NCBI RefSeq assembly: GCF_026745355.1
Contig: NC_079202.1
Span: 4,224,173-4,288,172, forward strand
Length of the DNA stretch: 64,000 nucleotides
From: Beta vulgaris subsp. vulgaris
Lineage: Eukaryota; Streptophyta; Magnoliopsida; Caryophyllales; Amaranthaceae
Direction of reading: 5' to 3'
Positions 5,486 through 64,000 of this stretch are shown in pieces. Each line of letters begins with the position of its first letter. The first letter of the stretch is position 1. The translations under genes and the position numbers were made by a program. The notes below the pieces were generated by a model. The model saw only the letters and a program-made list of their open reading frames with translations. It searched no databases and was not told the DNA's origin.

Positions 5486-5715
5486 TATTATTAATATTAT
5501 TATTAATTATGTTATTATTATTAATATTTATATTATTATTATTAATATTACTATTTATTATTATCAAATATTATTATTACTAATTTTTTATGATTATTGA
5601 TTGTTTATTAATTTTTATTATTTATTATTATTTATTATTTATTAATTTTTATTATTAGTTATTTATCATCATTTTCATTAATTATTAATATCAATATTAT
5701 TAATGATTATTTATT
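5486..5715. repeat. (ATT)n microsatellite, right part
   Basis: Continuation of the ATT/TTA array on the other side of the MULE insertion. It suggests one original array of about 0.8 kb that was split by the insertion. Confidence 0.9.
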
Positions 5716-5717
5716 TA

Positions 5718-5961
5718 CTTCCTCCGTCTCAAAATATTATGACACCTTCACTTTTCACGCATGTCAATGCAAAATTTTGAGGATATATATCTCCAATTTT
5801 GTATTTGTAAAAGTTATAAAAAGTATATATTAAGTTTATTCTAACAAGATTTCACAGGACTATATTTTTATTCATGTATAAATCACAAAGGATGGTCAAA
5901 GTGAAATTTCTGAATAGTGTAAAAATGTCAAAGTGTCACATTTAATTTGAAATGGAGGACT
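5718..5961. mobile_element. Stowaway-type MITE (Tc1/mariner-derived)
   Basis: Starts CTTCCTCCGTCTCAAAATAT and ends, read from the right, AGTCCTCCATTTCAAAT. The ends are flanked by TA at 5716-5717 and 5962-5963. Inner inverted segments pair TGACACCTTCACTTTTCAC with GTGAAATTTCTG and AAAGTGTCAC. Length 244 bp, no coding capacity. The CTCCGTC terminus and TA target are diagnostic of plant Stowaway elements. Confidence 0.85.
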
Positions 5962-5963
5962 TA

Positions 5964-6399
5964 TTATTATTTTTATTATGATTATTTATTTATTTATATT
6001 TTTATTTATTTTTATTAATTTAATCATAGTAATATTAAAGATAGTGACAATTTTCCATTTTCTTTGATGATCTTAATAATAGTAGTGACAATTTTACATT
6101 CCCTTTCATGTTCTTAATAACCAAATAACATGTTTAATCAAAGGTGGAAAACCCTTTCGATCCCCTTGTAACTTTTTATCATACCCTTTTTTTTTTGCTA
6201 CATAAGAGTAATATTATAACACCAAAAAGATATTTACAACCTAAAGGATCAAAGAAAAATGGCAAACCAACTAGGTTCGACTCCCCCAAAACCCCAACGA
6301 CTCTAACAACACAACTATACATCATCTTAACACCAATTGATCAAACCAATTGCTATCTCTCACTGAATTCTTTTAAGGTTTAACCCCATTGAGGCTCAT
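5964..6399. other. Unannotated AT-rich interval
   Basis: After a short tail of ATT repeat there is AT-rich sequence with no supported gene. The open frame at 6144-6383 has no recognisable domain. Confidence 0.5.
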
Positions 6400-7510
6400 A
6401 ATCAACTGAGCTTTGAGTTGCTTGGCAATTTTGTCTATCATCTAGAAAGTTCCATTCCACCATGCTTCATTCCTAGCCCACCAAACTGTGTGAATCACAT
6501 CATCCAGACAAGCACAAATGACTTTCTTTTGAAACTGACTTTTACTGGATCTGCTAATAGTCCTCAAGAGTTTCTGATACTGAACCTGATTTGTCTGCAT
6601 TTGCAGCCATTGCAAAATAATCTTTAAATAGCAATTTGCATAATTACACTGAAAAAGAGGTGAGCATTTGATTCATTTCCATCCTGGCAGAGCATGCATG
6701 AACTGGAGTTAGGCAGTCCCATTTGCATAAGCCTATATGTAGTTTTCAACCTCCCATGCATGACGAACCAGCATATAAATCTATGCTTCGGGATTGACAA
6801 CCTATTCCAAATATATGTGTCCCAGTTTACCTTCGCATATTCTCCAGTCTACATGTTGTACATTTTTTTTCACACTATACACAAGAATGGCAAGAAACTC
6901 TTCTCTATAAATAAAATTCTTAATCTCTTTCTTCATCTTGCATATCTGCTTCCAGTAGCAACTGCTATTAGAGGGGGGAACATACCCCCAACAATCATCA
7001 TCCTTGATATACACATAATGGGCCCATTTTATCCATAAGTTATCATGTTTAGTAGCAATTGCCTATATGTACTTTGTGATAGCTGCTTTGTTCCAAAGTT
7101 TGATATTTCTCACACCCAAACCTCCTGCTTTCTTTCGGGTACATATAGTGTCTCTATGTTGCTGCTTTCTGACTATAATAACACCCACTCCACAAGTGAG
7201 CACGACACACATTCTCAACTAGCTTTAAAATGGTCTTAGGTATGAAAAAGACATGTGCCCAATACACATGGAGACTCAAAAGAACTGAGTTGATAAGTTG
7301 CTCCAAATCTTGATTCTCATACACATCTTCTCTACTATACTTTCATATTCAGCCAGTGGAATTTTCTTTACACAAAAGCACTCCCATATTTCTAAATGGA
7401 AGGTTACTGTGCTTGAAGCCTGTTGCAAACAATCGTCCCTTCATATGTATCTCATGCGATTGTTTTTTCAACATCTTGAAAAATTGCAAAATGTGAGTTA
7501 CGAATAAAAA
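6400..7510 (-). pseudogene. LINE (L1-type) ORF2 remnant: RT C-terminus and zf-RVT region
   Basis: On the minus strand, pieces in shifting frames read like the end of plant L1 reverse transcriptase and the following zf-RVT domain. 7500-7200 gives EKMCMRIKIWSNLS followed by GHVFFIPKTILKLVENVCR. 7140-6810 gives GVRNIKLWNKAAITKY-like text, then MYIKDDDCWGYVPPSNSSCY and WKQICKMK. 6800-6430 gives RHAWEVEN, then a cysteine-rich stretch (MHALPGWK, PLFQCNYAN) and DDVIHTVWWARNEAWWNGTF. Many frameshifts and stops make it dead. The catalytic RT core (FADD) is not present, so this is a 5'-truncated or decayed copy. Confidence 0.75.
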
Positions 7511-11786: not shown

Positions 11787-11805
11787 CACTACAAAAAAAA
11801 ATTGG

Positions 11806-12420
11806 CTATAGAGGCACATCATTTGGCCGACTTGCCTCTAAAACCCCCTTTTACCATCACATAAACATGGTTGCCTCTAATTATATGGTTTTTAGTGTCA
11901 AGTATATTCTGGTGCCTCTAAAGATACATTTTAGCATCAGATGAATGTTGGTTGCCTCTAAAACCATGTTTTTAGCATCACATGAATATTGGTTGTCTCT
12001 AAATCCATATTTTTAGCATCACATGATTTTAATTGTCTCTAAAGCCATTTTTTTTAGCATCAAATATAGTTAGTTGTCTCTAAAGCCATGTATTTAGTGT
12101 CACATGACTTTAGTTGTCTCTAAAGCCATTTTTTCAGCATCAACTGTAGTTAGTTGTCTCTAAAGCCATGTATTTAGCGTCACATGAATTTAGTTGTCTC
12201 TAAAGCCATTTTTTCAGCATCAACTATAGTTAGTTGTCTCTAAAGCCATGTATTTAGCGTCACATGAATTTAGTTGTCTCTAAAGCCATTTTTCAGCATC
12301 AACTGTAGTTAGTTGTTATAAAGCCATGTATTTAACGTCACATGAATTTAGTTGTCTCGATAGCCATTTTTTTCAGCATCACATAGATTATTGTTGCATC
12401 TAAAGATATTTCTTAGTGTC
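11806..12420. repeat. Left subterminal repeat array of the CACTA
   Basis: About fifteen degenerate copies of a unit of about 41 bp. Each holds GTTGTCTCTAAAGCCAT or a variant (GTTGCCTCTAAAACC) followed by TTTAGCATCACATGAA or TTCAGCATCAACTGTAG. The two variants alternate in the middle of the array. In CACTA elements such arrays bind the transposase. Confidence 0.85.
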
Positions 12421-13500
12421 ACTTGAATTGTCGTTAGTGGTGCCAAAAACTATTATGACTGCTGGGTCAACCTGATATTGACCTGATTTGAACCTGGTTC
12501 GACCTGTGAGGGTCAGTCTCTAGACCTGATCGAAACCTAACATGGGATTACCCAGACCTGACCGTAGTGGTGTCAGAAACAGATCTGACCGCTGGATCAT
12601 CAAGATAAAAATGCAACTTCCTTCCGAAATTGTCAAATCCATAACTTTGATTCCAATTCTAAAATAAGATAGTAATTATTGCTAAACAGGATTTAAATTG
12701 GTACAGAATTTTACCGAAAAATAAAAACAAACTCGATTTTTCATTCTTTTTGTGTGATTTTTGGTGTGTTTTTGTTGGTTTTTGTGATTGTAGGTGGAAA
12801 TTGGAATTGAAAAGGATATAAAAAAACAAAATTAGAACAAGGAGCATTAGCACTGTAGCAGCGCCCAGTAGGCAGTAGACACCACGGCCCGGCCGTGGGC
12901 TTCATCCCACGCCACGACTGACCCGTGGCTGCCCTTTCCATTTCTTCGCATAAACCAACGCCGGTCACCTCCTCTGCGCACCACCACTCATCACCTCCCA
13001 GGTCATTCGGCACCAGAAACCCACTGGAACCCCACCGTCTTCTCTTCGCGCCTACCACCTCCCTCGCGTCTCCTGCCCGCACAACATCGCCTGACAATCT
13101 CCCCTCCTCTTACCCACACGATCGCCAGCATCGCACCACACCGCCGCCGACCCCCCTGCGCGGAACCACCATCTCCGATACCCTCGAATCCTCGCGACCC
13201 CGCCTGGTCCTTCGAATCACACTCCACCGTCCTAAGCCGCATCATCACCTGCGCCTTGTTCGTCGCCTCCTTCGACCGCCTACAGCAGCCGCAAATCTAA
13301 CCATCACCTCTCCTGCTCCGACCACCTTCCATCCTCCTGCTTTCGCACCCAGCCAGCTTCCCTGTTTTTCTGCTCTCTCTCTTCTTGCTTTACTCTGTTT
13401 CTTACGGTTTGGGGGTGCTTAGGTAAGGTGGTGTGGTGGTTGTCAAAGTGGGTGGTGGTGGAGAATGGAGCGAAAGAGATGGTTGGTGGTGGAGAGAGGG
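12421..13500. other. CACTA interior: GC-rich leader-like segment
   Basis: 12421-12840 has no supported coding. From about 12841 to 13420 the base composition jumps to CG-rich (CCACCACC, CCGCCG) and drops back sharply after about 13500. Both strands hold open frames (12925-13422 plus; 13003-13248 and 12741-13097 minus) made of Pro/His/Ser/Arg or Gly/Arg runs without any domain. I read it as a captured promoter/5' leader segment rather than a gene. Confidence 0.4.
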
Positions 13501-13827
13501 TCGAGGTCGCCGGTTTGGGGTTTAGTATTATAGAAATGATAGAAATTTAGGGTTTCATTTTAGAGTTTGTTTTTATAGGGGGGTTGATTTGGGGTTGTTT
13601 CAACTGTTGGATTAGATCTAATGGTTAGGATAGAAAGAAAGGAGAGATGAGAATTTCCAAAAAAGAAGAAGAAATTGGATCATTTTGGACCATTAGATCA
13701 ATAAGATTTTTGCTCTTTTACAAATCAAAGGCTAAAAATTAGGATTCATGTGTTTGTCTTTTGACCAATGAGATTTGAGAATGATAATGTTTATGGATTA
13801 TGACAAAAAAAATTATTGAATAACCAA

Positions 13828-13856
13828 TTAACAATATATTATTATTATTATTATTA

Positions 13857-13931
<75 letters not shown>

Positions 13932-13954
13932 CATCATCATCATCATCATCATCA
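13828..13954. repeat. (ATT)n/(ATC)n microsatellite
   Basis: About 100 bases of ATT triplets followed by about eight ATC triplets, inside the CACTA element. Confidence 0.95.
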
Positions 13955-13999
13955 TTTATATTATAATTGTTATTGTTATCGTGTTATTTTATTATTATT

Positions 14000-15300
14000 A
14001 TTTCGAATCATAATGCTTACCATAACCGAGTCATTAAAATTTTATATGAATCCAGTAATTGATTGTATACTCGTAGTTAGTATATAATACTCATTATTAT
14101 TATCGTTAGTTAAATTAGTCTAGTGGCTACCATTGGCACATTCATTAATTATACTAATTTGATATGAAATTTTCTTATTGTTTTAATTTCAATCCTCTTT
14201 GTAGATTTCGTATGCCGATTATCATGAATGAATTATCAATTCTCTTTGCTAGAGGAAGTAAAAGAAGTCAAAGTATTGCAATGATTGCATGATGAGTACT
14301 TGATAAAGTTAATTGATTGATTGTGACATTTGATTTCCAATATTCATAAGGATAGGAGTAATCAACCTAAAATTAGGTCTAAATTGGATTATGACTACTA
14401 GGTTCAGCAATGGATTGTGAATCTAGAAGTCCATAATTGATTGATTTGAATTGAAACCTCTATATCTACGACACTCATAGCGGGATACACCTCATTACCT
14501 CACATTTTCACTCGCTTTCTCTCACCTCACATACATATCAAAATACTCACCCACACCGACACTATTCTCTCTTTCAATCTCTTTCTCTCACCTCACCTTC
14601 ACTCCTCCCTTCGTTGCCCTTCATCTCTCTCACTTCACCGTCTCCTTCATTGCGATTTCGGTAAGTTCTTTTTCTCCAATTTGGTGCATCTCAACTTTTT
14701 TTTATCTTTGAATTTTCTGGATTAAGTTCGAAATTTGGGATCTTAAATTATGTGGGTTTGGGGCTTTGAATTTTGAGGGGTTTTGGGGTAAAATTCTGCT
14801 TCGAGTTAGTTCGAATTTTGGCTTTGACTACTTCGAATTTTCTGGATTATATTCAATTTACATTATGTTATACAGGATGTGGGTTCATATTTGAGTTTTA
14901 TTTGGATAATCTGATCTGTTTACGATTCGCTATTGACAGTGGCGATCATCTGCAACTAACAATTGGGTTGGTGTAAATTTTCTTATATGATATAAATTTT
15001 CCTGATCTAATATGAATTCTTCTTATTATACTTCGTTGGTTTTAAGGTTATAATTAGTCGAATCCGATGTGATTCGATTTGATTTTTTCTAACATTCCAT
15101 ATGTGAACACATTTTAGATTCGTGCAGCAATTCATAGGTAGGATAATTTCATCTACCTACTAATCAAATCAACAGAATGTACTACATACTACACACTATA
15201 CAGTCTAATTACATCGAAAGAATGGATGGATAGGATAATTCCATCTACCAACTGCTGGAAACGAAGGCGTTCTCTTCACACTCGTGGAAAAAACTCCTTG
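14000..15300 (+). other. CACTA interior: CT-rich leader with possible 5' splice site
   Basis: 14500-14655 is CT-rich (CTCTCTTTCAATCTCTTTCT and similar), like plant 5' leaders. It ends in GCGATTTCGGTAAGTTC, with a perfect GTAAGT donor at 14660, then T-rich intron-like sequence. No protein-coding exon was found in 14000-15300. Capture of the first exon and intron of a host gene is plausible but unproven. Confidence 0.35.
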
Positions 15301-15309
15301 TGCTACTTA

Positions 15310-15428
15310 TCAAGTGCTTGGGTTGATTAATCAACCGGAGCACTTATTCACAAGTGCTCCGGTTGACTAATCAACCCAAGCACTTGTGAAATAAGTGCTC
15401 CGGTTGATTAATCAACCCAAGCACTTGA
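15310..15428. repeat. Triple alternating inverted repeat, 36-38 bp units
   Basis: Unit 1 (15310-15347) and unit 3 (15391-15428) are exact reverse complements over 38 bases. Unit 2 (15351-15386) has the orientation of unit 3 with one visible difference. The units contain CAAGTGCTTGGG, TTGATTAATCAA and CCGGAGCACTT and are separated by 3-4 bases. RNA from either strand could form a strong hairpin. Confidence 0.95.
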
Positions 15429-17300
15429 TTGGACTCTAATTTTCCCTCCCAATAAGAAGTAATTAATTTTCGACTCTCTCTAATTAAGCCCACTTCTCCC
15501 TCCCTCCCAATTACTTCCCTCAATTGGAATCTCTCAATAGAACCCTCACTCGCACCGTTCCTCTGTAATAGCCCTATTTTTAAGCGCAACTATTTAAACG
15601 TTAAATATATTTTTAAGTTAATTATGTTACGAAAATTCTTATTTTATTTAAGTTGTGGAGTATTATTTTAATTTGTCTTGTTGTAGTATATTTGTTATAT
15701 TAATTTTATATAGTTATTATTATTATTAATGTATATTAAGGATTCTAAGTTTAAGTTGAGCGATATTTGGCCCAAATAGAAAACCAAAACCGGTTTCATT
15801 CTCGAACCATTAGACCTTGTTATTTTGTCGATTTAGTGAAACAAAACCCAAACCCAAAGATTTCCAATCTCATTTCATTTCTCCTTCACCTTGAAAACTA
15901 ATTTCTCCCAAACCGCAATTGATGAAAACCCGAAAACCTAAACCCCGTGAAGCTCTATCGCTCACCTTCGCCTGCTGCGTCGCCGACAATTCTTCCAGGC
16001 TCGTCGGAGTTTCCCCCTTGTCGGCGCCATTGATGTTCTCGTTTTCTCTCTCCTCCTCTGTTTCGTCGCTGTTGTTGTTGTTTTTAGCGGTGTTGCCGTT
16101 GGTCTTACTGGTTGTTAGCGCCGCTGTGGGCTGCTGCTACCATCACCTTGTTGTTGGTGGTGCTAGTTGTTGTCGCCTTCGAAGCCTCGAAACTCCTCCT
16201 CTCTGTTCTTCGCGTCGATGCTCTTGTGAGCAGAGGTAAATTTATTTCTTTTTAGACCCTTATATTTGTAAATTAAGCCAAGTTGTTGTTGTTTGTTGTT
16301 TGTTGTTGCTGGGTTGTTGTTGTTGTTTGTGAGTCGTGGAGTTGGTGGTGGTGGTGTTGGGTGTTGCTGTTTATTGTTACTGCTATTATTGTCGCTGTAG
16401 TATTATGTTATTGGGTTGCGTCTGTTTATTGTTGTTGAGGTTGTTGGTGGACATGCGTTGTTTAGTGTGTAGTTGGGTTGTTCTGTTTGGTGGTGTTTTT
16501 TCAGCTAGTGTTCATATGTTAATATATTGAATAAAAAGCTTGAGTCACAATATGAAACAATTATAGTATTTATTTTTGTAAGAAAAAAAACTTCCACATA
16601 TATTTCAAATAATCTACCAATATTGTATGATTAATATTTTAGGTGAAGTCCAACCTTGATAAATATAGTGATTGTAATTTCGACAGAGATATTATAACTT
16701 TGTTGTGGATGTTAGGCTTGGTGTTAGAGTTACCTCGGTCTTACTAGAAAGGATCATATATCCTCTTAGGAACAGTTTTTGCTTCTCACCAAATGGGTTG
16801 ATTTTCTTATCTTGCTAGGTGCTAGCCAAAGTCTGAATTCCTTGTGTTTGAAAACCATTTACAGGAGGTTATGGTCAACCAATAGTATATGTTGGCACCA
16901 GCATGCGAAGTATTGGGGTGTTGCAAGGTTTTTACTCGGTTTGAATTTCTTTCTCTCTCATTTATGTTCCTGCAAGTGTGAAAATGTGGTTAATACTTAA
17001 CCTATCCCTCCAAAAAATTGCAGCATCTGGTTATATATGCAGAAGGGACCCAACTGATTATTGCACAAGTATTGACAAACTAGATTCCATGAAAGACGGA
17101 GCAATTTGATAGAGCTTATTGTTTCCTGGATAAATTGATGTTTTTAAACATGTAGGTTCTTTTCTTTACAGTTGTTATTCTTCTTTCCAGTTCCACAGTC
17201 AAACTCAGTTTTCTTAGTCAACAATTTCCCATAGTTTGTTTTTAGGTTCATTCTGTTATTTTCTGAGGGATAGTTGCTCTAATGTTTCTTGATTTTTCGG
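15429..17300 (+). other. CACTA interior: leader-like and intron-like DNA
   Basis: 15850-16240 resembles a 5' leader (CCAAACCCAAAG, CTTCACCTTGAAAAC) leading into an open frame at 15919-16239 that encodes low-complexity Ser/Leu/Val and Cys-rich text. It ends at AGCAGAGGTAAATT, a possible donor. The GTTGTTGTT-rich run at 16280-16460 is simple sequence. I recognise no protein family. Confidence 0.35.
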
Positions 17301-17305
17301 CAGAA

Positions 17306-17410
17306 TTTTGCCTTTCTGTGGTTCTTCATTGGAACGTTATGGCATTTAAGATTAGGAATATTGCCTTTATGTGGTTCTTCATGGATGGTTATGGCATTTA
17401 AGATTAGGAA
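17306..17410. repeat. Tandem duplication, 52-53 bp
   Basis: Two adjacent copies of a unit containing TTGCCTTTCTGTGGTTCTTC and GGCATTTAAGATTAGGAA, plus the start of a third copy. The second copy differs at a few bases. Confidence 0.85.
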
Positions 17411-18371
17411 TATTGTCTTTCTGAGTCTTCGAATTCTTCGAGGAACGTTTCGAAGGTATTTTTCACTCCATTGAATTTCTATCTTTTCGTCGATTTCGTC
17501 ATTTTTTCAATTCTGGATTCGTTTATGATAATATTATGAATCTGTTGTTAATTTTCAAGAATTTTAGCGGAAATTTTTATCTGGATTATACAGTTTTGTG
17601 TGTATGAACTTATGATGTAATGACGCCTGTTTCTCAGTTTAATATAGATTGGTTTTGTCTGGATCATATGTTTTTTCAGTGACTTATTTGGATTGTGGTT
17701 TTGTAGGTTGTTTGTGTGGTTGAATTTGATTATTATTTGATTCGGTGTTATTCGATTGGTTGTATATGTGATTGGTTGTATATCTCCTCCATGCCCTCTT
17801 TACAACCTCATTGTTGTCAATGTGGGGAGGAACAACCAGGTCAACCACAGCAGTCACGGTGTCACTGAACCATTCTTCTTTTTGTGTGCAGTTTTTCAAA
17901 CCCTAAGCTTCTACTGCAAGTCTGCAACTCAAAATCATAAGCATCTGCAATAACAACTACTTTTTTTTGAGGTGATGCAAGAGCCTAGATGTGTCAAATG
18001 AGTCGACTAGGCTCGGTTCAGGTCAGTCAAATATTTTTGGGTTTCAAGTATTATTCTGTTATTCTGTATTAACCTTTTAGTGGAATTTCTAGATTTTTAC
18101 TCAAGTTACGTTGGGTCTTTCTCTGGTTAGGCGTAAGTTTATGCTACTTTTAGTGGTTTGGGTCTTATGGCTATGTGGTATCGTTGTTCTTTAAGTAGCC
18201 CTCGCTTCAAAATCATCTTAAATCATTAGTCCTTAGCAATATAACGTGTACACCCAGTATATCAGCCTCAAAGTACTACATTTTCTTATGTTAATTTTCC
18301 TTTTATTTGTGTTCTTTTGTAGTCAAAGTTCATGTCCAATAACTGAATGTTTATCTTTGTTAAGTGGTTAG

Positions 18372-18675
18372 AGCTGTTACCACTCCTAATTCAGCTCTGG
18401 AGCTGCCCCTAACTGAGGAAAATGTTGAAACTGTACTAGATGAAGTGCGGCCATACTTAATGGCTGATGGGGGTAACGTTGCCATACACGAAATTGATGG
18501 TAATGTTGTTCGTTTGAAGTTACAAGGAGCATGTGGATCCTGTCCGAGTTCTGTAACGACCATGAAATTGGGTATCGAGCGCCAGCTTATGGAAAAGATT
18601 CCTGAGATAGTTGCAGTTGAAGCAGTTCCTGATGAAGAAACTGGCCTTGAGCTAAACGAAGAAAACATAGAAAAC
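18372..18675 (+). pseudogene. NFU2-like: Captured exon of chloroplast NFU2/NFU3-type iron-sulfur scaffold gene
   Basis: The NFU domain carries Fe-S clusters to plastid apoproteins such as photosystem I subunits. This exon encodes about 100 residues typical of plant chloroplast NFU2/3: [39 protein letters not shown], then GACGSCPSS with both cluster-binding Cys (codons at 18532 and 18541), [20 protein letters not shown] and [12 protein letters not shown]. It starts after an AG acceptor (GTGGTTAG, 18371) and ends at a GTATGT donor (18676), so it is a whole internal exon with an intact frame. I found neither the transit-peptide exon upstream nor the second NFU-domain exon downstream within the element. 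It lies inside the CACTA at 11787-20654, so it is most simply a captured fragment. A spliced chimeric transcript remains possible. Confidence 0.85.
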
Positions 18676-19960
18676 GTATGTCTTGATCCCAAGTCATTAT
18701 TTTCAAAAAATTAGATCATATATTGGTACTTAATTTCCTCGATATTTTGTCTGTTATTTAATCAAATCAACACAATTAAGATAATGGTTGTAACTTGTAA
18801 TTGGTTTAAGATACACCCCTAGACTGGAGGTTGTGCTTGTTCCTCTCCTACAATGTTTCATAGGGGTCGACAGCTTGTCTTTGGTCCTCTTTTACAATGT
18901 TCACTCCAACATCCTTCCCAGGGGTTTATCTATAGACTTAAGAAAATAACCAATGGCTATAAGGAACTTTAATTGGTTTAATGAGATGGGAGTAAGTGGA
19001 AACTGTCAAGAGAACATTAAATGCATAGTGAGTTCGATGGAGAGCTATGGCTTTAAATGGTGCGCTTCTTCTGTTTCCTTGAGCCTCGGATACCAGTGAT
19101 AACACCTATTGACTAGAATATGGACTTATAAGGTTCAGTTCTGTGTGAGGTTTTCTAGAGTTTGTTCAGGTCATGTATGAGAACAGAATGAATTTGCTCT
19201 TTTTACTGATATATAGTTTTGAGGTTATCTTGTTCAAGCCTAAAAATCACTGATTTTGGCCAGGAGAGAAAAAGTAAAAACCAGTGCTCTTTTTACTATA
19301 ACAGTTGTAAATAATGGTGAATAAAATTGCTATCTGAATCCTTCTAGTTGTGGCTTTGATGCTGTTAAATAAGTATTTTTGGTCAATCTGGAAAGGTTTG
19401 TGCTGCTGACTTGCTCATGTTTGTTTTTGCATGATCATTGTTGTTCATGTACTTAATCTTGTGTTATTGCAGCGGTTGCTATGCTTTTTAGTTGTTTCCG
19501 GTGCAAGTTGTCGTGCCACTGCGTGCTACTACTACCGGCTAAGCCAATTATTGTACAAGTTATTACAACTTTGTTAAACTAATATTTGTTATTAAACTAA
19601 TATTTACTATATGCATGTGTTGCAGGTGCTTGCGGAATCCAACTATTCAAACAATTGAAGAATAATATGAGGAAGAAAATAGCATGACACTAACAAAGAC
19701 TGAGGCAATTGAAAAATGGAATGACACTATTCAAACTATTAGATATCTTTTTTTTTCTCTCTTGTAATTTCCAATTTCTTTTTACTGTAACAATTGTGAA
19801 CAACCAACTAGACATGTTAGTTGATTAAGTATTTATATAAATAACAATTATTTTTTATCTATATAGTAGCTTTTTATTGATTCATTAAATTGTTTTGTTT
19901 GTTTACTTTTAGTATTACTATAGCATATATATGTATTAATTCATAAATCTTAAACTGTAA
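18676..19960 (+). other. CACTA interior downstream of the NFU exon
   Basis: Intron-like T-rich sequence follows the NFU donor. No second NFU exon or other gene is recognised. 19470-19790 has a few short GC-richer stretches without a domain. Confidence 0.45.
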
Positions 19961-19974
19961 AATGTGTAGTTGCC

Positions 19975-20640
19975 CCTAATAGTTTTAATAAAAATGTCAA
20001 AAGTTGCACCTAAAAACATCCTTTAGCGACTAACTTATGGTTGCATTACAAGAAACATATAATTAGAGATGGATTTATGGTGCCTCTAAATATAAGTGGT
20101 CTTATCAGCAATATAACTTGTGTGCCCCAAAAAGGTGGATTAGGGGCAACCTATAATTAGCGACAGACATATGGTTGCCTCTAAACGTAAGAGGCTTTAG
20201 CAGAATTGTAACTTGTGTGCCTCAAAAGGTGGCATTAGGGGCAACCTATTATTAGCGACAGACACATGGTTGCCTCTAAACATATCAGTCTTTAACCGCA
20301 CCATAACTTGTCTGCCTCTAACTGACGCATTAGGGGCAACCTATAATTAGCGACAGTCATATGTTTGCCTCTAAACTTAAGAGTCTTTAGCAGATACCAT
20401 AATTTGTCTGCCTCTAAAACGTGGCATTAGGGCAACCTATAATTAGCGACAGGCATATGGTTGTCTCTAAACATAAGAGTCTTTAGCAGCACCATAACTT
20501 GTCTGCCTCTAAAACGTGGCATTAGGGGCAACCTGTAATTAGCGACGGACTAATTAGAGGCAACCAAAAAATTGTTTCTAAACACCATTAGAGGCTACAA
20601 ATATATATTTAGATGCAATTTTGGATTGCCTCTATATGTA
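19975..20640. repeat. Right subterminal repeat array of the CACTA
   Basis: About six copies of a unit of about 97 bp holding GGTTGCCTCTAAACATAAGA, CTTTAGCAGCACCATAACTT, GTCTGCCTCTAAAACG, GGCATTAGGGGCAACC and TATAATTAGCGACAG. The same unit appears inverted at 59640-60080, identifying a sibling element. Confidence 0.88.
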
Positions 20641-20663
20641 GTTTTTTTGTAGTGTATTTTTTA

Positions 20664-53894: not shown

Positions 53895-54396
53895 TGTTGG
53901 GCCCACATTTTACAACTTGGCGCTGGGTTGCAAAATATTCAAAAAAGGGAGAGTTGAAGATGGGCCGCCAAAATGAAGGAGACCAGTTCAAAGCATGGCA
54001 GTTAAGCTGTTGAGATTTAAGGGGGATTTGCGCTGACATGGCGCTGAGATAGTGGAGCTACTCACGAGATCAGCTAACGAAGATTCCCATATATATATAT
54101 ATATATATCTCATGTAAACCTAGAGGAGGATCTGATTTTAATCTCTCTCTCTAAGTATCTCTTAAAGTTTATTCACCATCTTCTTTACTATCCTATTTCC
54201 CCTTGTAACGAAGAACAAAGTTCTTTACATTGTTCGATATTTGTACGACGCCGACATCATATTAGTGGATTGGTGATCAAGAGCATCACCGCGGTTTTTC
54301 CCTTTTTGGGTTTTCCGCGTCAACAATTCTCTGTTCCTTTTATCGCTTTATTTATTTTATGTCGTTTATTTCTTTAATAATGTTGATTGCTATTTA
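53895..54396 (+). repeat. Left LTR-like direct repeat
   Basis: Pairs with 55983-56467. It includes a (TA)n run at 54090-54109 and a CT-rich leader-like stretch at 54136-54215. Confidence 0.75.
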
Positions 54397-55853
54397 TATA
54401 TATGTATTTGCAGTGCAAGCCCCTCGTTGGCGACAGTAGTTAAGGGGAGGCTGGCCAGACGACGCTGAGGAGCAGGGAAGGCTAGTCTTTCCGCTGTTGG
54501 GAAAATGGCTGACAAAGTGATTTCTCCAAAGTTCTTGGGGAGCCTAATGGTGAATGTTTCCCCCTCTTGAAGCGGTGTCCTAGCAGTCTTGGCGGCGTCA
54601 TTGGAGTTTGACGTCTTGGCAGCCTTCGACGAGATTGGTGGAGGAGGCGTCATAGTTTTGCTGGCAGCAGATTATTTTCTCTTCTTGGCCCTCTCCAACA
54701 TTTCTGCCTCGGACAAGATGACGGTCGATGTTTTTGATCGGTTTGACATGGTGTTTTCTGGGAAATATGAATGACGTCATGTCAAGCATAGGTTACTAGA
54801 AATAGAGGTAATGAGAAATAGATCTACCTAACGCCATAGAGGGTGATGTATTGTTGGTAGGTTCGGTGGTAGTGACGGTGCGTTCTTCGGTAGAATGGGG
54901 CAGAGAGTCACCGTCGGGCGTTGGTAGCTTAAAGTTGTTTCTGAACGTCCGTTCTTGATCCGGGTAATTTTTCAGCAGTTGGTGGATCTTGGTTTTTGAG
55001 TAGAGGGAATCTTCGACGGGTAGAGGCAACACTTCTGCAATAACATCACAAATTAGACGGCGTCAATGATGCGGTCTATAAAAATACAACACAGGAAAGA
55101 AGAATTACCTTCGGAATTCCAGCCGTCGCGTAGGAAGCTGAGGTTTTTTCCCATAGTTTTCTTTTCCACAAAAAAATATTTCTTCTTCCAACCCCTGTCA
55201 TTGGCCCCCGAGTTCTCTACCAACGAGCGGCGTCCGGGTTTCAGAAAGAAGGTGTATCTAGTGTTTTCTACTGTTTTAACTTCATACAAGTAAAGGAGAT
55301 GTTCTATGGTAAAGGACATGTTCAAAAGTTCCGTCAGTTTGTCAATAACATGAATCACTCGCCAAACTAATGGCATGAGTTGGCCAGGACTAATTTGCAT
55401 AATTGACAAGAGTTGCGTCATCAGGGGGTTGAGAGGGAATTTATACCCAATCTTGAAGGGGTATTCGTAGAACACAACCCATCCCTCAGGGCAGTCGTCA
55501 GGGCCCTCGTCTATTTGGGGAATCTTGATTTTCGTAGAAATAGGTAAGCCTGATTTTTCTAAAAAAGTTTCTATATCTTCCTCAGAAAATTCGCTACTTA
55601 CATTCTTTCCCCCAATTATCCCTCATTCTATTATAACGACTTCGTCTGAGCTTTCAACGATTTTTGAGTTCCTTTTGGATTTTCTAATTTTCGGGTCTCT
55701 TTCGGAGCCATGGAAGAAAATTGAAGATGGCGAAGAGAAATTACCTGTTTTACGGAGGACGAGAACCTTTCTACGCGCCAGAGACTTGGAGATTCTTGGG
55801 AGTTGAGAGTTTTTGAGAGAAATGAGGAGAGAGGAACTGAAAAGTCGAAACAA
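54390..55853 (-). pseudogene. Transposase_28 (putative gypsy-type transposon) domain protein, broken
   Basis: On the minus strand, 55853 to 55110 stays in one frame apart from a TGA at 55622-55620. It encodes acidic text (SEEDIETFLEKSGLP, IDEGPDDCPEGW), then FYEYPFKIGYKFPLNPLMTQ, ISPGQLMPLVWRVIHVI, SFTIEHLLYLYEVK and FFVEKKTMG, the pattern of the plant Transposase_28 domain. At 55108 a GTAATT donor and at 55035 a TTGCAG acceptor define a 74-nt intron, after which the frame continues (EDSLYSKTKIHQLLKNYPDQ). Another donor/acceptor pair is visible at about 54829 and 54760. The last exon (MSNRSKTSTVILSEAEMLER-like, AAKTSNSNDAAKTARTPLQE) has a TAA near 54674. The domain's biochemical role is not established. 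Stops indicate a dead copy. Confidence 0.65.
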
Positions 55854-55982: not shown

Positions 55983-56467
55983 CGTTGGGCCCACGTTTTA
56001 CAACTTGGCGCTGGGTTGCAAAATATTCAAAAAAGGGAGAGTTGGAGGAGACCAGTTCAAAGCATGACAGTTAAGCTATTGAGATTTAAGGGGGATTTGT
56101 GCTGACATGGCGCTGAGATAGTGGAGCTACTCACGAGATCAGCTAACGAAGATTCCCATATATATATATATATCTCATGTAAACCTAGAGGAGGATCTGA
56201 TTTTAATCTCTCTCTCTAAGTATCTCTTAAAGTTTATTCACCATCTTCTTTACTATCCTATTTCCCCTTGTGACGAAAAACAAAGTTCTTTACATTGTTC
56301 GATATTTGTACGACGCCGACATCATATTAGTGGATTGGTGATCAAGAGCATCACCCGCGGTTTTTCCCTTTTTGGGTTTTCCGCGTCAACAATTCTCTGT
56401 TCCTTTTATCGCTTTATTTATTTTATGTCGTTTATTTCTCTAATAATGTTGATTGCTATTTATATAT
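55983..56467 (+). repeat. Right LTR-like direct repeat
   Basis: Copy of 53895-54396, shorter by a deletion near 56045 and a shorter TA run (56159-56172). Confidence 0.75.
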
Positions 56468-58314: not shown

Positions 58315-59624
58315 ATTGGCGCTAAAAGGAGGGGGAAATTGTACCTTTAGTCTTAAGCCACGAACATACCGTACCACCTACTCAATGGATCCTAGGAAAG
58401 CATTTGGGATGCCGGAAACAGATGAGAACAACAACACTCTGAATGACGCACCACCTGGGTTCAAAACTCCCCAGCCGATAATCGGGTCTTCCCAGCCACA
58501 AGCTAATAAGGGTAAGAGGGTAAGTACTGAAACCCCCATCCCAACATATTTGAAAGCTACAACACATGTTCATCTCTGAACAACTCAAAAGTGTTGCATA
58601 ATTAAGTCATTCAGGCCATGACGGGTCAAACTCCACCGACCGGTCGTGCTAGTAAGCATCCCCTGAATAGGCCACACAGTCCTGTTAGGAAGATTTGATC
58701 TCTGCTAAGTGGCCGTCAGGGTGATCAAAGTCGGCATGATTAATATTAGGAGTAAAGCTCTAAATCTGCCATAGAGCCCATGGGAGATGAAGCCGAAGGA
58801 GGTCGATCAACAGGATACGAAGATCCAACAATCGTCCCAGCCTACGAGAAAAAGTGAGTATGCCCAACGTCGAGCACCGGTTTCTCTCGCGTACTTCTCC
58901 TTTCTCGACTACTATGCTCCAGGGGTCGATGGAGAAGATCAAAATGCTGACATGCAAGTATGATGGCAAAATAGACCCTGAAGGTATATCTGCTGATGAA
59001 GGATACATGTTACTCTATACCGACACTGACTTTGTTTGGTGTAAAGTGTTCCCTTCCACTTTGTTTGGCCTGACACAAACTTGGTTCAAAAGTATTCCGC
59101 CAGAAACTATCTATGAGTTCCAACAACTTACGACCATGTTTACCACGCACTTCATTAGCAATAAGCGGAGGGAAAAACTACCAGTGAATTGATGTCAATC
59201 AAGTAGGGGGAAAATAAAGCATAAGGGATTATATCAGCCGCTTTAACTCTGAAGCTGTTACCATCCCCAACTTGCAGCAAGAGGTCGCAGTCTTAGCATT
59301 GATGACCGGTCTAAAGGAAGGAACTGCTTTCAAGAGTTAATTGGGTCGTAAGAAGTTAACGAGCGTAACTAATGCTCTTGGTAAAGATAATGAATTTATC
59401 AAAGGAGAAGAGTATGACTAGGCGACAACTTCTAAGCGGTCTGAAGGGGACGGTAAGGAGAACGAGAAAGAGAAGAAAAAGACAAATACTAGAAGGACAA
59501 TAAAAGTGATAGCTCCGGTAGAAGGGAAAGAGTAACTCTATAAAGAAGGGCTCAGACAGACGAGAGCGATACCACAATTCTACTCCCTTAACGATGTATA
59601 GAGCCGAGATCTACAAATTGCACA
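58315..59624 (+). pseudogene. Ty3/gypsy gag, truncated by a CACTA insertion
   Basis: The likely gag start is ATG at 58385 (MDPRKAFGMPETDENNN). After a disordered stretch with stops, 58854-59192 matches the Retrotrans_gag domain: EKIKMLTCKYDGKIDPEG, WCKVFPSTLFGLTQTWFKSI, PPETIYEFQQLTTMFTTHF. The match continues in other frames to about 59430 (DYISRFNSEAVTIP-like, MTGLKEGTAFKS). It is broken by stops and frameshifts. At 59625 a CACTA element begins, so any pol would lie beyond the window or is lost. Confidence 0.75.
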
Positions 59625-59639
59625 CACTACAAAAAAAAC

Positions 59640-60080
59640 TACATATATAGGCAATCTAAAATTGCATCTAAATATATATTTGTAGCCTCTAATGGTGATT
59701 AGAAGCAATTTTCTCGCTGCCTCTAATTAGTCCGTCGCTAATTATTATAGGTTGCCCCTAATGCCACCTTTTAGAGGCAGACAAGTTATGGTGCCGCTAA
59801 AGACACTTCTGTTTAGAGGCAACCATATGCCTGTCGCTAATTGTTGGTTGCCCCTAATGCCACCTTTTTTAGGCATAGAACTTATAGTGCTGCTAAAGCC
59901 ACTTACATTTTGAGGCGACCATAAACCAGTCGGTAATTATAGGTTACCCCTAAGGCCACCTTTTTGGGGCACACATGTTACATTGGTGATAAGACCATTT
60001 ATATTTAGAGGCAACAATAAGTTCGTCTCTAATTTTAAGTTGCATCTAATGCAACCATAAGTCTATCGCTAAAGGATGTT
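59640..60080. repeat. CACTA subterminal repeat array
   Basis: About four copies of the unit of about 97 bp found at 19975-20640, here inverted: GGTTGCCCCTAATGCCACCT, TTAGAGGCAGACAAGTTATG, CTAAAGACACTT, GAGGCAACCATATGCCTGTC. Confidence 0.85.
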
Positions 60081-60792
60081 TTTAGATGCAACAACTAGAA
60101 TTTCCACATTTTCGATAATTTTTTTGTGATTTTTTGACGTTTATAAGCATCGAAATAAAAAATTATGAACTCCCTAAAGGAGCAGCGAACATTTAGCCAC
60201 TGATAATTAACGACACTCATAGGCTTCGAAAATGTTGAGGCCTTTTAGCATCATTGCAATTGAAGATGTCGCAATTTGAAGCTACTATATAGACACTTGA
60301 AAGCGTCATCATTGTGTTATTAGTACAGCAACAGTTACAAGCACATTCTTACATCAACAAAAAAAAAATAACATTATAAATTAATAAAGGAAACTAGAAA
60401 TATAATAATCTTATTACTAACAATTTTGACGAATTGATAAAAACATTCAGAAGAGGAAATAAAAGAAATAAAAAAAATATGTAGAAATTCCATCTTCAAC
60501 CGACATTCAACCTTCAGTGAATCTTCAACATAAAACTTCAACTTGAATGCAATTCAATATGCAAATTCAACCCAAAAAAAAAGATCAATAATTGCAAAAT
60601 AAAAAAGAACATAAATCTGGAAATTGCAAAACTATACCAAAAATCTTTGAGGCCCTTTTCTGCTCTCAATATCCTGCATTTTTTCAGAAACACACACATC
60701 AAAAACAAGATCTTAAAAAAAAAGTCATATATATACAAAGAATAGATATTGATGAGCAGCGTTTCACAGATTCAGTACTGTGAACTGGTATC

Positions 60793-60888
60793 CTTCAAGT
60801 TATTTAAGAGATCCTTAAGAATGCTGATGAAGGGAGTTGCTCCAATGCCGAGTCCAATGAGCAATAGAATGTCATACTTCTTGTAATC
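60793..60888 (-). pseudogene. RBOH-like: Captured RBOH (NADPH oxidase) fragment
   Basis: RBOH proteins make superoxide at the plasma membrane. Their C-terminal cytosolic part binds FAD and NADPH. The 32 codons here read [11 protein letters not shown] then [19 protein letters not shown] and LK, the strongly conserved NADPH-binding segment of plant RBOHs. A TGA codon precedes DYKKYD where the family normally has sequence ending in AQ, so the frame is closed upstream. Nothing downstream of LK matches the family. It is a short genomic fragment inside the CACTA, on the same strand as the CAP-G and sulfotransferase pieces. Confidence 0.8.
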
Positions 60889-61009
60889 TCAGGCCACACA
60901 GCTGAGTAGCCAAGATTGGACCTTTAGCACTACTCTAAACACAACATTCTGAAAAGTACCCGAGTGAAGCAAAATGAGCAACTATATTAAACAGCTAATG
61001 TGAAATTAC

Positions 61010-61442
61010 CTGAGGCTCTGGAGAGGAAACTTATTATTGGCCAAAACGAAATACGCTGCTTTGCGCACTAATTCCTTAACATAAAGAGTACAACTAATGA
61101 TCACTAATGATGTAGCATTTGAGAGGAGTAATGATAGCAGAATGGTCTTTCTTACATCCTGCATAGTAAGAGTTAAGTAAGCAAGCAAGGAAAGGCACAG
61201 AAAGCCCGAAAAAATCTAAAAAAGCTCTTACAGAATCGAAATAGATTGGGTTACCAAAGTAAATCACTAGTATTTTAAACTTCAGGAACTACATAATAAG
61301 TAATCCCCTAAGCATATTACTGCAAAAAAAGCATATATACATACATCATTTTGCTCTGAATCCAGTGGTTGAACGAATAAATCAAGAATGTCACTGTTCT
61401 CAGAATCATTCACAAAACGTGAAAGAGCTCTAATTGAAAAGC
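61010..61442 (-). pseudogene. CAPG-like: Captured condensin subunit CAP-G fragment (two exons)
   Basis: CAP-G is the HEAT-repeat subunit of condensin I, needed for mitotic chromosome condensation. Exon a (61345-61442) follows a CCCCCAG acceptor and encodes GFSIRALSRFVNDSENSDIL then DLFVQPLDSEQND. Exon b (61010-61158) encodes DVRKTILLSLLLSNATSLVI, ISCTLYVKELVRKAAYFVLA and NNKFPLQSL. The 186-bp intron between them has GT and TTGCAG-like (TATGCAG) borders and joins the exons in frame. Exon b ends in CAG/GTAATT, an intact donor. Both match plant CAP-G (ALSRFxNDSxNSDILDLF, DVRKTIxLSLxxSNAT). The kept intron shows a genomic capture rather than a cDNA copy. The rest of the gene is absent. Confidence 0.8.
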
Positions 61443-61489
61443 CTGGGGGAAGGAAGTTCATTAACATGATGCAGTCTCTTTTTTCACCC

Positions 61490-62860
61490 CACCAGCCTTC
61501 TGATTGTTCGCTTTAAACCAACACTTGGATTTTTTTTCTCCCTCCCTTTATGACGCTAATTGCAACTTATCTATATTTCATTCAGTCCGCCTCACCATAC
61601 GAGATATAGAGATTATTTAGAATGAGAAACTTTAAATTGAGAAAAACACCTATATGCTGACATGTGGCCTATATAGTGTTAGGATTTTCGGCTCACAAAT
61701 TGCTGAATCACACAGTATTATAACATGGAAAAAATAAGATAGGAAATAACAAGAACTTCAATGAAAAAACACAAGGAGATTTAACCGGGGACCCAAGCTC
61801 CTTGAGTAAAAGCACCAACTCAGCACTAGGAATTTGTACCATGTATGAGATTATGATACAAGCATCTCAAAATCTCTCAATCTAAGCCTTAATGTGTTTG
61901 ATCCTATACAACTGTCATAATTTAAACATTTACGTTCTTTCATGGCCAAACAATGTACTTACACTAGGGTTACAAAAGCATTATTAAGTATGTTGTTTTT
62001 CACGCTGTAGTCGACATTGGCAATCCGTTTGACTGGGCACACAGGCAGACGCATGAAGAAGATAGGAATACCTGGCCTTTCGTTTGAGCGCTTGAGCAAT
62101 CTGCCGATTTTCTTTTCTTCTCCTTGCCACTTCTAGCCTTCAGTTATGCAATCTTGTGACCTTTATGTTTAACCATCTCCTCATAACTCCACATATATAA
62201 CAAAAAATCACCACCTCCATTGCTTTTCTTTCGACTTTGTTATGGCCAAGAGACAGAGTTCTATTTATCATGTCGGACTGTTGGAGAATAGAAACAGGGT
62301 TTTTTTGTAAGATTAGATAATAAGTCGCTTAATTGAAGCGTCACAGAACTAAATGTTCATCTTTTTAGTTGGACGTGTAACCTTTTGATCTAACTAGTAC
62401 CTGTACTCTTCTAAACAAATGTGTTTATCATCTCCATTTTTCAATTTTTTTTATATGAAATTCAGCTTAAAAAAAGTACATATCTTCTTTACTTGCTGCA
62501 CATGATCCTTTTCATTTTAAGCGCCTACTCATTGGATCCCTATGTGACAAAATATAACTCTATCATTAGCTCACCCATTTGCCAATATAGTAAACTTGAG
62601 ATTAGATTACTTGGAGTTCTTACAGGATTTTGATGTTGGTCTAAACTCTGGACCATTCATGTCGAGGTTTACAAATGAAAAGAACTTGTATTTAACAAAG
62701 ATGTACAGAATAATAATTTATTTCAAAAGTGTTGCACCTTTTTTAGCTGAAAAAAAGCTTATTCACTTATAAAAGTACGTTTAAGTATCCTCACATGATC
62801 ACATCCTTTTCTTATTAAGCCCCCTTCCCGTTGACCTCTCTCTCTCTGCTGCTTGCTCTC
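61490..62860. other. CACTA interior, unannotated
   Basis: No recognisable gene. 61770-62240 is GC-richer and might hold further captured material, but no protein family could be read in either strand. Confidence 0.35.
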
Positions 62861-62866
62861 TGTCCC

Positions 62867-62868
62867 TG

Positions 62869-62903
<35 letters not shown>

Positions 62904-62904
62904 T
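62867..62904. repeat. (TA)n microsatellite
   Basis: About 38 bases of TA repeat with one CA interruption, preceded by a CT-rich stretch at 62837-62864. Confidence 0.9.
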
Positions 62905-63036
62905 ACACAATCACACACAAGTTTTTCTGTTATGTGAATGAAATTGACTTACAACCTCCTCTAAAAGAAGTTCTCTTACCAGAGGAGCATTCAATTTGCT
63001 TCCTGCGCTATGTTCTTGCTCTTGAAAGCAAACATC

Positions 63037-63198
63037 CTCTAGATGATACACAAGTTCGCGTGGGTGATTTTTAAGCAAAGGACTTTCATGTTTTGGATAG
63101 TTGTTACGATTGACAATCGCAAAGACTAAGGCTTTAAACCAATTGGTTCCGATTTTCCGATGGCCAGCGACGATGAGATCGGAATCTCGAGCATAAAA
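63037..63198 (-). pseudogene. SOT-like: Captured cytosolic sulfotransferase fragment
   Basis: Cytosolic sulfotransferases move sulfate from PAPS to flavonoids, hormones and other small molecules. The fragment reads FYARDSDLIVAG, HRKIGTNWFKALVFAIVNRN and SPLLKNHPRELVYHLE. Plant SOTs have ARDSDLIVA, then the PAPS-binding loop PKSGTTWLKAL, then AIVNR and HPLL-NPHDLVPxLE. The loop is damaged here (H-R-K-I-G-T-N-W-F-K in place of P-K-S-G-T-T-W-L-K), so it cannot be active. About 54 of the usual 320-350 residues are present. The downstream codons to 62911 do not look like SOT. Confidence 0.78.
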
Positions 63199-63479
63199 GT
63201 TTAAAAGCATGATATGCAGGATGTTACCCCAAAATTAACCCCCAAATTCGATTTATTCCAAAATTTTTGAACAAAAGTATAAAACCCCCACAAAATTCGA
63301 ACTAGTTTATGAACCCAAATCCCCTAATCCACTGAATAACCCACCCAAATTCGAAATTTCCACCCCAAATTCAGATCGAAACAACAACCCCAAAATTGAA
63401 ACCAAGATTTTCAACTTATAAGCAAAAATCCCAATTCAATCGAAAAAAGGAAAACAGAAAAAATATCTGTGCAGATGAA

Positions 63480-63690
63480 AAAAAGAGTGAAGGACCGTCT
63501 GTGAGTGAGTAGAGGAGGCGGCAGTCACGGTGGTAAAAAGCGGCAGCACCAGCAGCAACAACGGTTCTTCAGAGATAGATAGTGAAGAAGAAATGAGAAG
63601 GAAATAAGGGGGAGAAAGAAAGCCTAGGAGAGATAGATGAAGAAATGAGAGTTAAATGGAAACCAGAATGAAAAATCAGAATGATATGAG
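63480..63690 (-). other. Possible leader of a chimeric minus-strand transcript
   Basis: On the minus strand this is CT-rich with GCCGCC-like runs, as in plant 5' leaders. It lies upstream of the three captured fragments. Promoter activity is only inferred. Confidence 0.25.
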
Positions 63691-63775
63691 GGCGGGGCTT
63701 TAAACTTTTGACGAAAATTTTTAAAACATTGAAGGGCGGGGGCTTTAAACATTTTTGATGAAAATTTATAACTTC
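63688..63775. repeat. Tandem duplication, about 46 bp
   Basis: AGGGCGGGGCTTTAAACTTT with GACGAAAATTT is repeated as AGGGCGGGGGCTTTAAACAT with GATGAAAATTT. Confidence 0.8.
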
Positions 63776-64000
63776 AAAAAATCAAATCAGATCTCATTAA
63801 ATCCTTTAAAAATAATAAGTTTTAAAAATTATTATACTTTGACCAAAGAAGTCAACTTAAATATGTAATAGGGAACAAAGGAAGTACTACTATAATTTTG
63901 TTTGACTCAAAATTGTTTTAATTTAATTTTTAGCTTTGATGTCTTTGTTTTCCTTGTTGATAGTACAAGAGTTTCCAATGAACTAGGGGCTGGACGACCA

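What the first reader, a model, noticed from the sequence alone, without database searches (positions are those of the whole stretch)
59625..64000. CACTA element that has captured pieces of three unrelated host genes on one strand
Seen: a CACTA terminus at 59625, and behind it minus-strand fragments of a sulfotransferase, condensin CAP-G (two exons with the intron) and RBOH. Their order on the minus strand is SOT, CAP-G, RBOH. Known: Pack-CACTA/transduplicating elements in plants acquire gene pieces. Inference: one minus-strand transcript starting beyond 63500 could read through all three and give chimeric RNA or antisense/siRNA against the parent genes. The preserved CAP-G splice sites make splicing plausible.
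Basis: partly seen in the sequence, partly recalled or inferred. Interest (0 to 1): 0.82.

Follow-up and report, generated by a model that had tools for sequence, protein, structure and literature searches.

The report
Jumping gene carrying five host-gene pieces
A jumping gene in what is almost certainly the sugar beet genome carries scraps of five ordinary plant genes, and sister copies elsewhere in the genome show the order in which it picked them up, which makes it a good case for studying how such elements acquire genes, although nothing shows that the scraps do anything.

Summary
The window lies in a 569-Mb plant genome whose size fits sugar beet EL10.2. Past the window edge is the second terminus, at position 65520, with the same 3-bp duplication, ACA: a complete 5,896-bp non-autonomous CACTA (Pack-CACTA) inside a Ty3 retrotransposon. 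The SOT, CAP-G and RBOH pieces are real, on the minus strand, with donor genes or close paralogues on C3, C2 and C10. Two plus-strand pieces were missed: 1.57 kb of a LEUNIG-like gene (mostly intron, C10) and a MATE-transporter exon (cluster on C5). Captures are nested: four sister copies carry the SOT piece uninterrupted; here LEUNIG-like DNA replaced 32 bp inside it, and CAP-G+SOT lie inside the RBOH piece. Four joints share 2-4 bp (13 in all, 2.9 expected, P 0.0006), and no family sequence lies in the 3.4-4.9 kb on either side of three donors. This favours capture by break or gap repair with template switching over the published fusion of neighbouring insertions. Chimeric RNA or siRNA is untested; the coding pieces look neutral. 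A new member of a known kind, useful for the capture mechanism.

The parts
58791..59192 (+). Ty3 retrotransposon gag reading frame into which the element inserted; gag-like sequence continues after the right end (L009:6124 on, read by eye)
   Evidence: Pfam PF03732 E 2.6e-5; sequence
59622..59624 (.). target-site duplication ACA, left copy (right copy L009:6121-6123 = 65521-65523)
59625..60644 (.). left end of the element: CACTA terminus, 96-bp subterminal repeats (59744-60056), and family sequence also present in copies without an RBOH piece (L002, L003, L007, L008 match to 60644)
60645..60887 (-). RBOH (NADPH oxidase) piece: exon, intron and start of next exon
   Evidence: L029 (C10) 5044-4799, 97%; K2P 0.022 over 60652-60887; Pfam PF08030
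60888..61440 (-). condensin CAP-G piece: two exons, the intron between, and part of the next intron; splice sites kept
   Evidence: L026 (C2) 4713-5272, 94.3%, K2P 0.041
61441..61472 (-). 3' part of the captured sulfotransferase piece (match runs 61437-61472)
   Evidence: L044 (C3) 1166-1201
61473..63036 (+). 1.57 kb of a LEUNIG/LEUNIG_HOMOLOG-like gene, mostly intron, opposite strand; it replaced 32 bp inside the SOT piece
   Evidence: L034 (C10) 4938-6536, about 94%; K2P 0.042 over 61471-62869
63037..63200 (-). 5' part of the captured sulfotransferase piece
   Evidence: L044 1234-1397, 91%; Pfam PF00685
63201..63217 (.). 17 bp of unassigned sequence between SOT and the RBOH remnant
63218..63226 (-). 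AGGATGTTA, read as the remnant of the other edge of the original RBOH piece (8 of 9 bases also occur in the SOT donor)
   Evidence: same joint in L041 and L039, in which no SOT body or CAP-G was found
63227..64000 (.). family core, continuing to 64406; shared by many copies
63834..64000 (+). MATE/DETOXIFICATION transporter piece (intron end plus exon), continuing to about 64051 in L009; oldest of the five
   Evidence: PDB 5y50 DTX14 E 0.0014; donor cluster C5:49.01-49.13 Mb; 84% over 224 bp to L046
64000..64000 (.). element continues beyond the window: deletion joint at 64401-64406 (6-bp repeat; L024 is 5.3 kb longer there), about 40-bp subterminal repeats from about 64920 (by eye), right terminus TAGTG ending at 65520
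   Evidence: L009

Best explanation
A complete non-autonomous CACTA (En/Spm-type) transposon of the Pack-CACTA kind. It moved by cut and paste with a transposase supplied in trans, leaving the ACA duplication (termini and duplication shown; transposase source inferred). Its cargo was acquired in steps: MATE, then RBOH, then CAP-G with SOT inside the RBOH piece, then LEUNIG-like intron DNA inside the SOT piece. Presence and absence in sister copies, and the split of one piece by the next, support this order. Each later step is best explained by repair of a break or excision gap inside the element, in which the copying end jumped to an unrelated gene at a few matching bases, copied a stretch of it, and was joined back with a small internal loss (inferred). 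The cargo is most likely passenger DNA (inferred).
For: Both termini and duplication; sister copies complete with their own duplications: L023 TTA and L039 TTT, L024 CTC. Donors or close donor paralogues: RBOH C10, CAP-G C2, LEUNIG-like C10, SOT cluster C3, MATE cluster C5. Before-and-after states: no RBOH at the same site in L002, L003, L007, L008, each with a MATE match 1.8-4.2 kb from its left end; RBOH joined directly to the core in L041; SOT uninterrupted in L025, L027, L028, L033 and split in L009, L024. Microhomology TAAT, AAAA, TGC, CT at four joints, sum 13 against mean 2.9, P 0.0006. In the 9.9-kb stretches around donors L026, L029, L034 only the captured piece matches the element (hits of 60 bp or more; flanks 3.4-4.9 kb). 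CAP-G exon codons: 7 nonsynonymous, 2 synonymous changes and a 3-bp insertion.
Against: Taken singly only two of the four joints exceed chance at 5% (P 0.019, 0.022, 0.062, 0.18), and the joints were read by eye before the test. The RBOH|CAP-G joint may be a later deletion rather than a capture joint, because sister copies L027 and L028 have a dynamin piece there. The core|RBOH joint shows at most about 1 shared base (by eye), and the SOT|core joint is complex, with 17 unassigned bases. The tree of the left 1 kb is star-like and puts L028 and L033 with L040 and L042 (100/99), away from L009 and L025 which share their CAP-G|SOT joint, so copies have probably exchanged parts; L040 does hold a 33-bp CAP-G trace. 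SOT identity to the best donor is only 91%, so the true donor may be another paralogue. No genome search for a transposase was made.
Confidence: 0.75

Rival explanations
1. Capture by fusion of neighbouring CACTA insertions followed by joint mobilisation (the published Pack-CACTA model): the DNA between two nearby copies becomes internal cargo.
For: Published model for Pack-CACTA (section 9 of PMC8903248; passages of PMC13317346). Newer cargo lies further inside, as that model also predicts. It could still hold for the MATE and RBOH steps, whose joints were examined least.
Against: No terminus sequence was seen at the joints read. The flanks (3.4-4.9 kb) of three donors hold no family sequence; only 1.6-2.8 kb around the SOT and MATE genes was fetched, and not tested for this. 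The LEUNIG-like piece replaced 32 bp inside an older piece, which needs one break and a filler rather than two tandem insertions.
Confidence: 0.15
2. The element makes a minus-strand chimeric RNA (SOT, CAP-G, RBOH) or small RNAs that affect the donor genes.
For: CAP-G donor and acceptor sites are preserved. The RBOH exon of this copy has no change over 109 sites. Soybean Tgm-Express1 fragments are spliced into chimeric transcripts (passages of PMC1947982).
Against: No RNA data. 1.57 kb of opposite-strand DNA splits the SOT piece. The SOT loop PKTGTNW of the donor paralogue reads RKIGTNW here. RBOH exon divergence over 16 copies (20 of 1483 sites) against the other RBOH sites (129 of 3777) is about what neutral copies of a constrained donor would give. 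The element lies in a retrotransposon, not in a gene intron.
Confidence: 0.12
3. The fragments are parts of separate host genes or pseudogenes unrelated to the element, or the arrangement is an assembly error.
For: None found.
Against: The same pieces recur in the same order in L024 and, less the SOT body, in L023, each with its own duplication; genes of the same kinds lie elsewhere.
Confidence: 0.01

Closest known systems
Tgm-Express1 of soybean (CACTA element with five host gene fragments, 5.7 kb; PMC1947982, passages seen)
   Same: Size, CACTA superfamily, several unrelated gene fragments with introns retained
   Different: Tgm-Express1 sits in an F3H intron and its fragments are shown in transcripts; here the element sits in a retrotransposon with no RNA evidence, but sister copies show stepwise nested capture
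Pack-CACTA / Pack-TYPE elements of Arabidopsis, maize and rice (PMC8903248, abstract and sections 9-10 read; PMC13317346, passages seen)
   Different: The acquisition model given there is fusion of neighbouring insertions; the joints here look like break repair with template switching
CACTA elements with captured gene fragments in Chenopodium (PMC8978399, passages seen)
   Same: Same plant family (if the genome is Beta), CACTA with host gene fragments
   Different: The fragments there (Neprosin, AP2) were found by conserved-domain search; no stepwise nested series appears in the passages seen
Pack-TIRs of animals made by gap filling (PMC8277862, passages seen)
   Same: Microhomology at joints, internal position of the filler, donors elsewhere
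   Different: Animal elements; that paper separates single-copy gap filling from multicopy elements

Membership tests
CACTA (En/Spm) superfamily | CACTA...TAGTG terminal inverted repeat | tested here: met
   CACTACAAAAAAAA at both ends, 59625 and 65520
CACTA (En/Spm) superfamily | 3-bp target-site duplication | tested here: met
   ACA/ACA; relatives TTA, TTT, CTC, ACA (L036), TAT (window 11787-20654)
CACTA (En/Spm) superfamily | subterminal repeats | tested here: met
   96-bp repeats on the left; about 40-bp repeats on the right, read by eye
CACTA (En/Spm) superfamily | transposase (Tnp2 type) in an autonomous relative | not tested
   The transposase family was not searched in the genome; one copy, L036, holds a Transpos_assoc frame (PF13963) between its ends, beside its right terminus
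Pack-CACTA | non-autonomous: no transposase inside | tested here: met
   Only two stop-to-stop frames of 80 aa or more in the element: 133 aa (weak MATE match) and 107 aa (SOT)
Pack-CACTA | carries host gene DNA with donor loci elsewhere in the genome | tested here: met
   Five pieces with donor genes or paralogues
Pack-CACTA | multiplies as a unit with its cargo | tested here: met
   L024 holds the same pieces in the same order in a complete element at C6:37349648-37360895
Transcribed chimeric Pack element (as Tgm-Express1) | chimeric transcripts | not testable with these tools
   no RNA data

The most novel reading that the evidence does not exclude
The family is a fossil series of gene capture by a CACTA transposon: repeated capture at one internal site, each new piece inserted into the previous one by repair with template switching and a small loss, with intermediates still present in one genome. 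It would be direct comparative evidence that Pack-CACTA elements can acquire genes by break or gap repair rather than only by fusion of neighbouring insertions.
Probability: 0.6. Interest if true: 0.55.

Novelty: new member of a known kind. Interest (0 to 1): 0.48.

Why it matters
How CACTA elements pick up genes is hard to tell from end products alone. Here the states before and after a capture sit side by side in one genome: an uninterrupted SOT piece in four copies, and the same piece with 32 bp replaced by 1.57 kb from a gene on another chromosome. The joints can be read to the base and tested in other beet accessions. It also gives a concrete multi-gene Pack-CACTA family for annotation, where such pieces are easily mistaken for genes.

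Tried and rejected
Separate genes rather than an element: rejected by the second terminus and duplication and by sister copies. A long SOT frame down to 62914: rejected, homology stops at 63037. RBOH exon under purifying selection: considered because this copy's exon is unchanged; over 16 copies the pattern fits neutral copies of a constrained donor. Captured genes always in one direction: considered, rejected because the LEUNIG-like, MATE and dynamin pieces lie on the other strand. A clean vertical tree of captures: not supported. A search for further copies of the LEUNIG-like piece (first 61561-62940, later 61471-62018) did not complete, so its copy number is unknown; the six copies seen came from a query ending at 61560. 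An NFU protein search did not complete. The dynamin donor was not sought. The LEUNIG name rests on recalled motifs plus one WD40 hit. Dating by substitution rates was considered and is not given.
Full report
Where it is. The window is C1:4224173-4288172 of a genome of 569,194,541 bases in 20 contigs. The total, and the longest contig length shown to me (C9, 72.47 Mb), fit the sugar beet assembly EL10.2 (568.8 Mb in 18 sequences, longest 72.5 Mb, in a table of PMC12614215, passages seen). The species name is an inference.

The element. The left end CACTACAAAAAAAA is at 59625. I fetched the DNA past the window edge. The right end TTTTTTTTTGTAGTG stops at L009:6120, window-equivalent 65520, and ACA flanks both ends. 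Length 5,896 bp. It lies in the gag region of a Ty3 retrotransposon (PF03732 at 58791-59192). Only its ends resemble the complete 8,868-bp CACTA at 11787-20654 of the same window (571 bp at 93%, 434 bp at 82%). The 476-bp left end gave 43 matches in the genome, with 40 of 302 candidates scored, so the family is probably larger than that. The longest stop-to-stop frame in the element is 133 aa, so it carries no transposase.

Cargo and donors. RBOH: 60645-60887 matches L029 on C10 (97%; 5 substitutions in 236 sites), an RBOH gene with Ferric_reduct and NAD_binding_6 domains. CAP-G: 60888-61440 matches L026 on C2 (22 substitutions in 548 sites), a CAP-G gene with a Cnd3 domain. The intron is included and its GT and AG are kept. 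SOT: 63037-63200 and 61437-61472 match two neighbouring stretches of an intronless SOT gene on C3, L044 (91%), one of three places on C3 at 86-91%; a fourth C3 place matches at 69%. A sister SOT gene, L045, gives a full Sulfotransfer_1 match (E 3.5e-70). LEUNIG-like: 61471-63038 matches L034 on C10 (56 substitutions in 1376 sites for 61471-62869). In L034 it lies between a glutamine-rich exon and the next exon, so it is mostly intron, and it is on the plus strand. The LEUNIG name is recalled from motifs; the tool support is a WD40 hit in one of three frames tested. MATE: 63834-64051 matches intron and exon of a MATE gene in a cluster at C5:49.01-49.13 Mb (84% over 224 bp; PDB DTX14 E 0.0014; Pfam MatE below its cutoff).

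How the pieces sit. In L025, L027, L028 and L033 the SOT piece runs through, and in L025 and L033, the two compared, it matches L044 1166-1397 as one block of 232 bp. In the window element L044 1202-1233 (32 bp) is replaced by the LEUNIG-like piece, and L024 has the same arrangement. L023 has part of the LEUNIG-like piece and the SOT stub but has lost 62449-63220. In L041 a 580-bp RBOH piece joins the family core directly at 63218; in the window element the same core joint is kept as nine bases, and CAP-G plus SOT lie inside. In L002, L003, L007 and L008 (3.4-kb stretches) the site reads on without RBOH, and a MATE match lies 1.8-4.2 kb from the left end of each of the four. So the order is MATE, RBOH, CAP-G with SOT, LEUNIG-like. 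Of 40 MATE protein matches in the genome, 34 lie within a few kb of a family match, four in the C5 cluster and two elsewhere. MATE is also the most diverged piece.

Counts. One search gave 28 matches: 24 at 21 element places, three at donors and one at an RBOH paralogue. I fetched 17 of the 21; C10:17602675, C6:41961035, C6:34333534 and C3:13859126 were not fetched. RBOH sequence is in 16 of the 17, the CAP-G|SOT joint in 7 of 17, LEUNIG-like sequence in 6 of 17, in three of them only in part (L030-L032).

Further cargo in sister copies. L027, L038 and L040 carry dynamin-like exons by Pfam, and L028 and L037 by DNA identity to L027 and L038 (96-98%), on the strand opposite to RBOH. In L027 and L028 this piece lies between RBOH and CAP-G, so the direct RBOH|CAP-G joint of the window element is probably a later deletion. 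L024 keeps 5.3 kb that the window element lacks at a 6-bp repeat. L036, a complete copy of 7,384 bp with ACA on both sides, holds a Transpos_assoc domain beside its right end.

How it works. Shown: termini, duplication, donors or donor paralogues, nesting, states before and after. Inferred: a transposase from elsewhere moves it; breaks or excision gaps inside the element are repaired with copying from unrelated loci. Support for the last step: shared bases TAAT, AAAA, TGC and CT at four joints (sum 13, mean of random breakpoints 2.9, P 0.0006 in 20,000 draws; singly P 0.019, 0.022, 0.062, 0.18), no family sequence in the 3.4-4.9 kb on either side of three donors, and loss of 32 bp at the last capture. 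Limits: the joints were read by eye, one may be a deletion, the core|RBOH joint shows about one shared base and the SOT|core joint is complex. The tree of the left 1 kb (19 copies and an outgroup) is star-like; L028 and L033 group with L040 and L042 at 100/99 although they share the CAP-G|SOT joint with L009 and L025, so copies have probably exchanged parts. L040 does hold a 33-bp CAP-G trace, which lessens the conflict for that copy.

Function. No RNA evidence was available. CAP-G exons have 7 nonsynonymous and 2 synonymous changed codons plus a 3-bp insertion, SOT 9 and 6 (against a paralogue), RBOH none. Over 16 copies the RBOH exon has 20 changes in 1483 sites and the other RBOH sites 129 in 3777, about what neutral copies of a constrained donor exon would show. 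I read the cargo as passenger DNA.

Against the literature. Multi-gene CACTA elements are known: Tgm-Express1 of soybean holds five gene fragments and is transcribed (passages of PMC1947982). Pack-CACTA elements with several loci are described in maize (section 10 of PMC8903248). The capture model given for them is fusion of neighbouring insertions (section 9 of PMC8903248; passages of PMC13317346; the original Arabidopsis paper was not held). Gap filling with microhomology is described for animal Pack-TIRs (passages of PMC8277862). A search of the held library for CACTA with template switch, gene fragment and microhomology returned one paper, that animal study; a search for CACTA, Beta vulgaris, captured and gene fragments returned three, of which I saw passages of one (PMC8978399). 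Other listings were seen as listings only, apart from the papers named. So the kind is known; the nested series is the useful part.

None of these called for a change of odds.

Noticed in passing
window 11787-20654: A second complete CACTA element (8,868 bp, TSD TAT) holds an open 116-aa NifU-like (NFU) frame at 18364-18714 (PF01106 E 1.3e-26). The stretch occurs at four places at 98-100% (own included); a C9 place (21594784-21594877) reads 18300-18333 directly next to 18716-18780 with a 4-bp overlap, like an empty site; the only other DNA match is 69% on C11.
   Followed up: partly
window 53913-54401 and 56001-56467: Two stretches about 97-100% identical in direct orientation, flanking a minus-strand gene-like region.
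   Followed up: no
L027, L028, L037, L038, L040: Sister CACTA copies carry dynamin-like exons, a further host gene captured by the family.
   Followed up: partly
L030, L031, L032: Three copies whose short RBOH stretch is 100% identical to the donor over 85 bp while their LEUNIG-like parts differ from that donor by 5-9%, perhaps recent exchange.
   Followed up: no
L036:7272-7970: A reading frame with a Transpos_assoc domain (PF13963) lies beside the right terminus of a complete family copy (L036:573-7956, ACA both sides), in sequence absent from the window element; a nested piece or a remnant of the family's transposase genes.
   Followed up: partly
L033:4660-5774: 1.1 kb of unidentified sequence between RBOH and CAP-G, unlike that of L027 and L028.
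   Followed up: no
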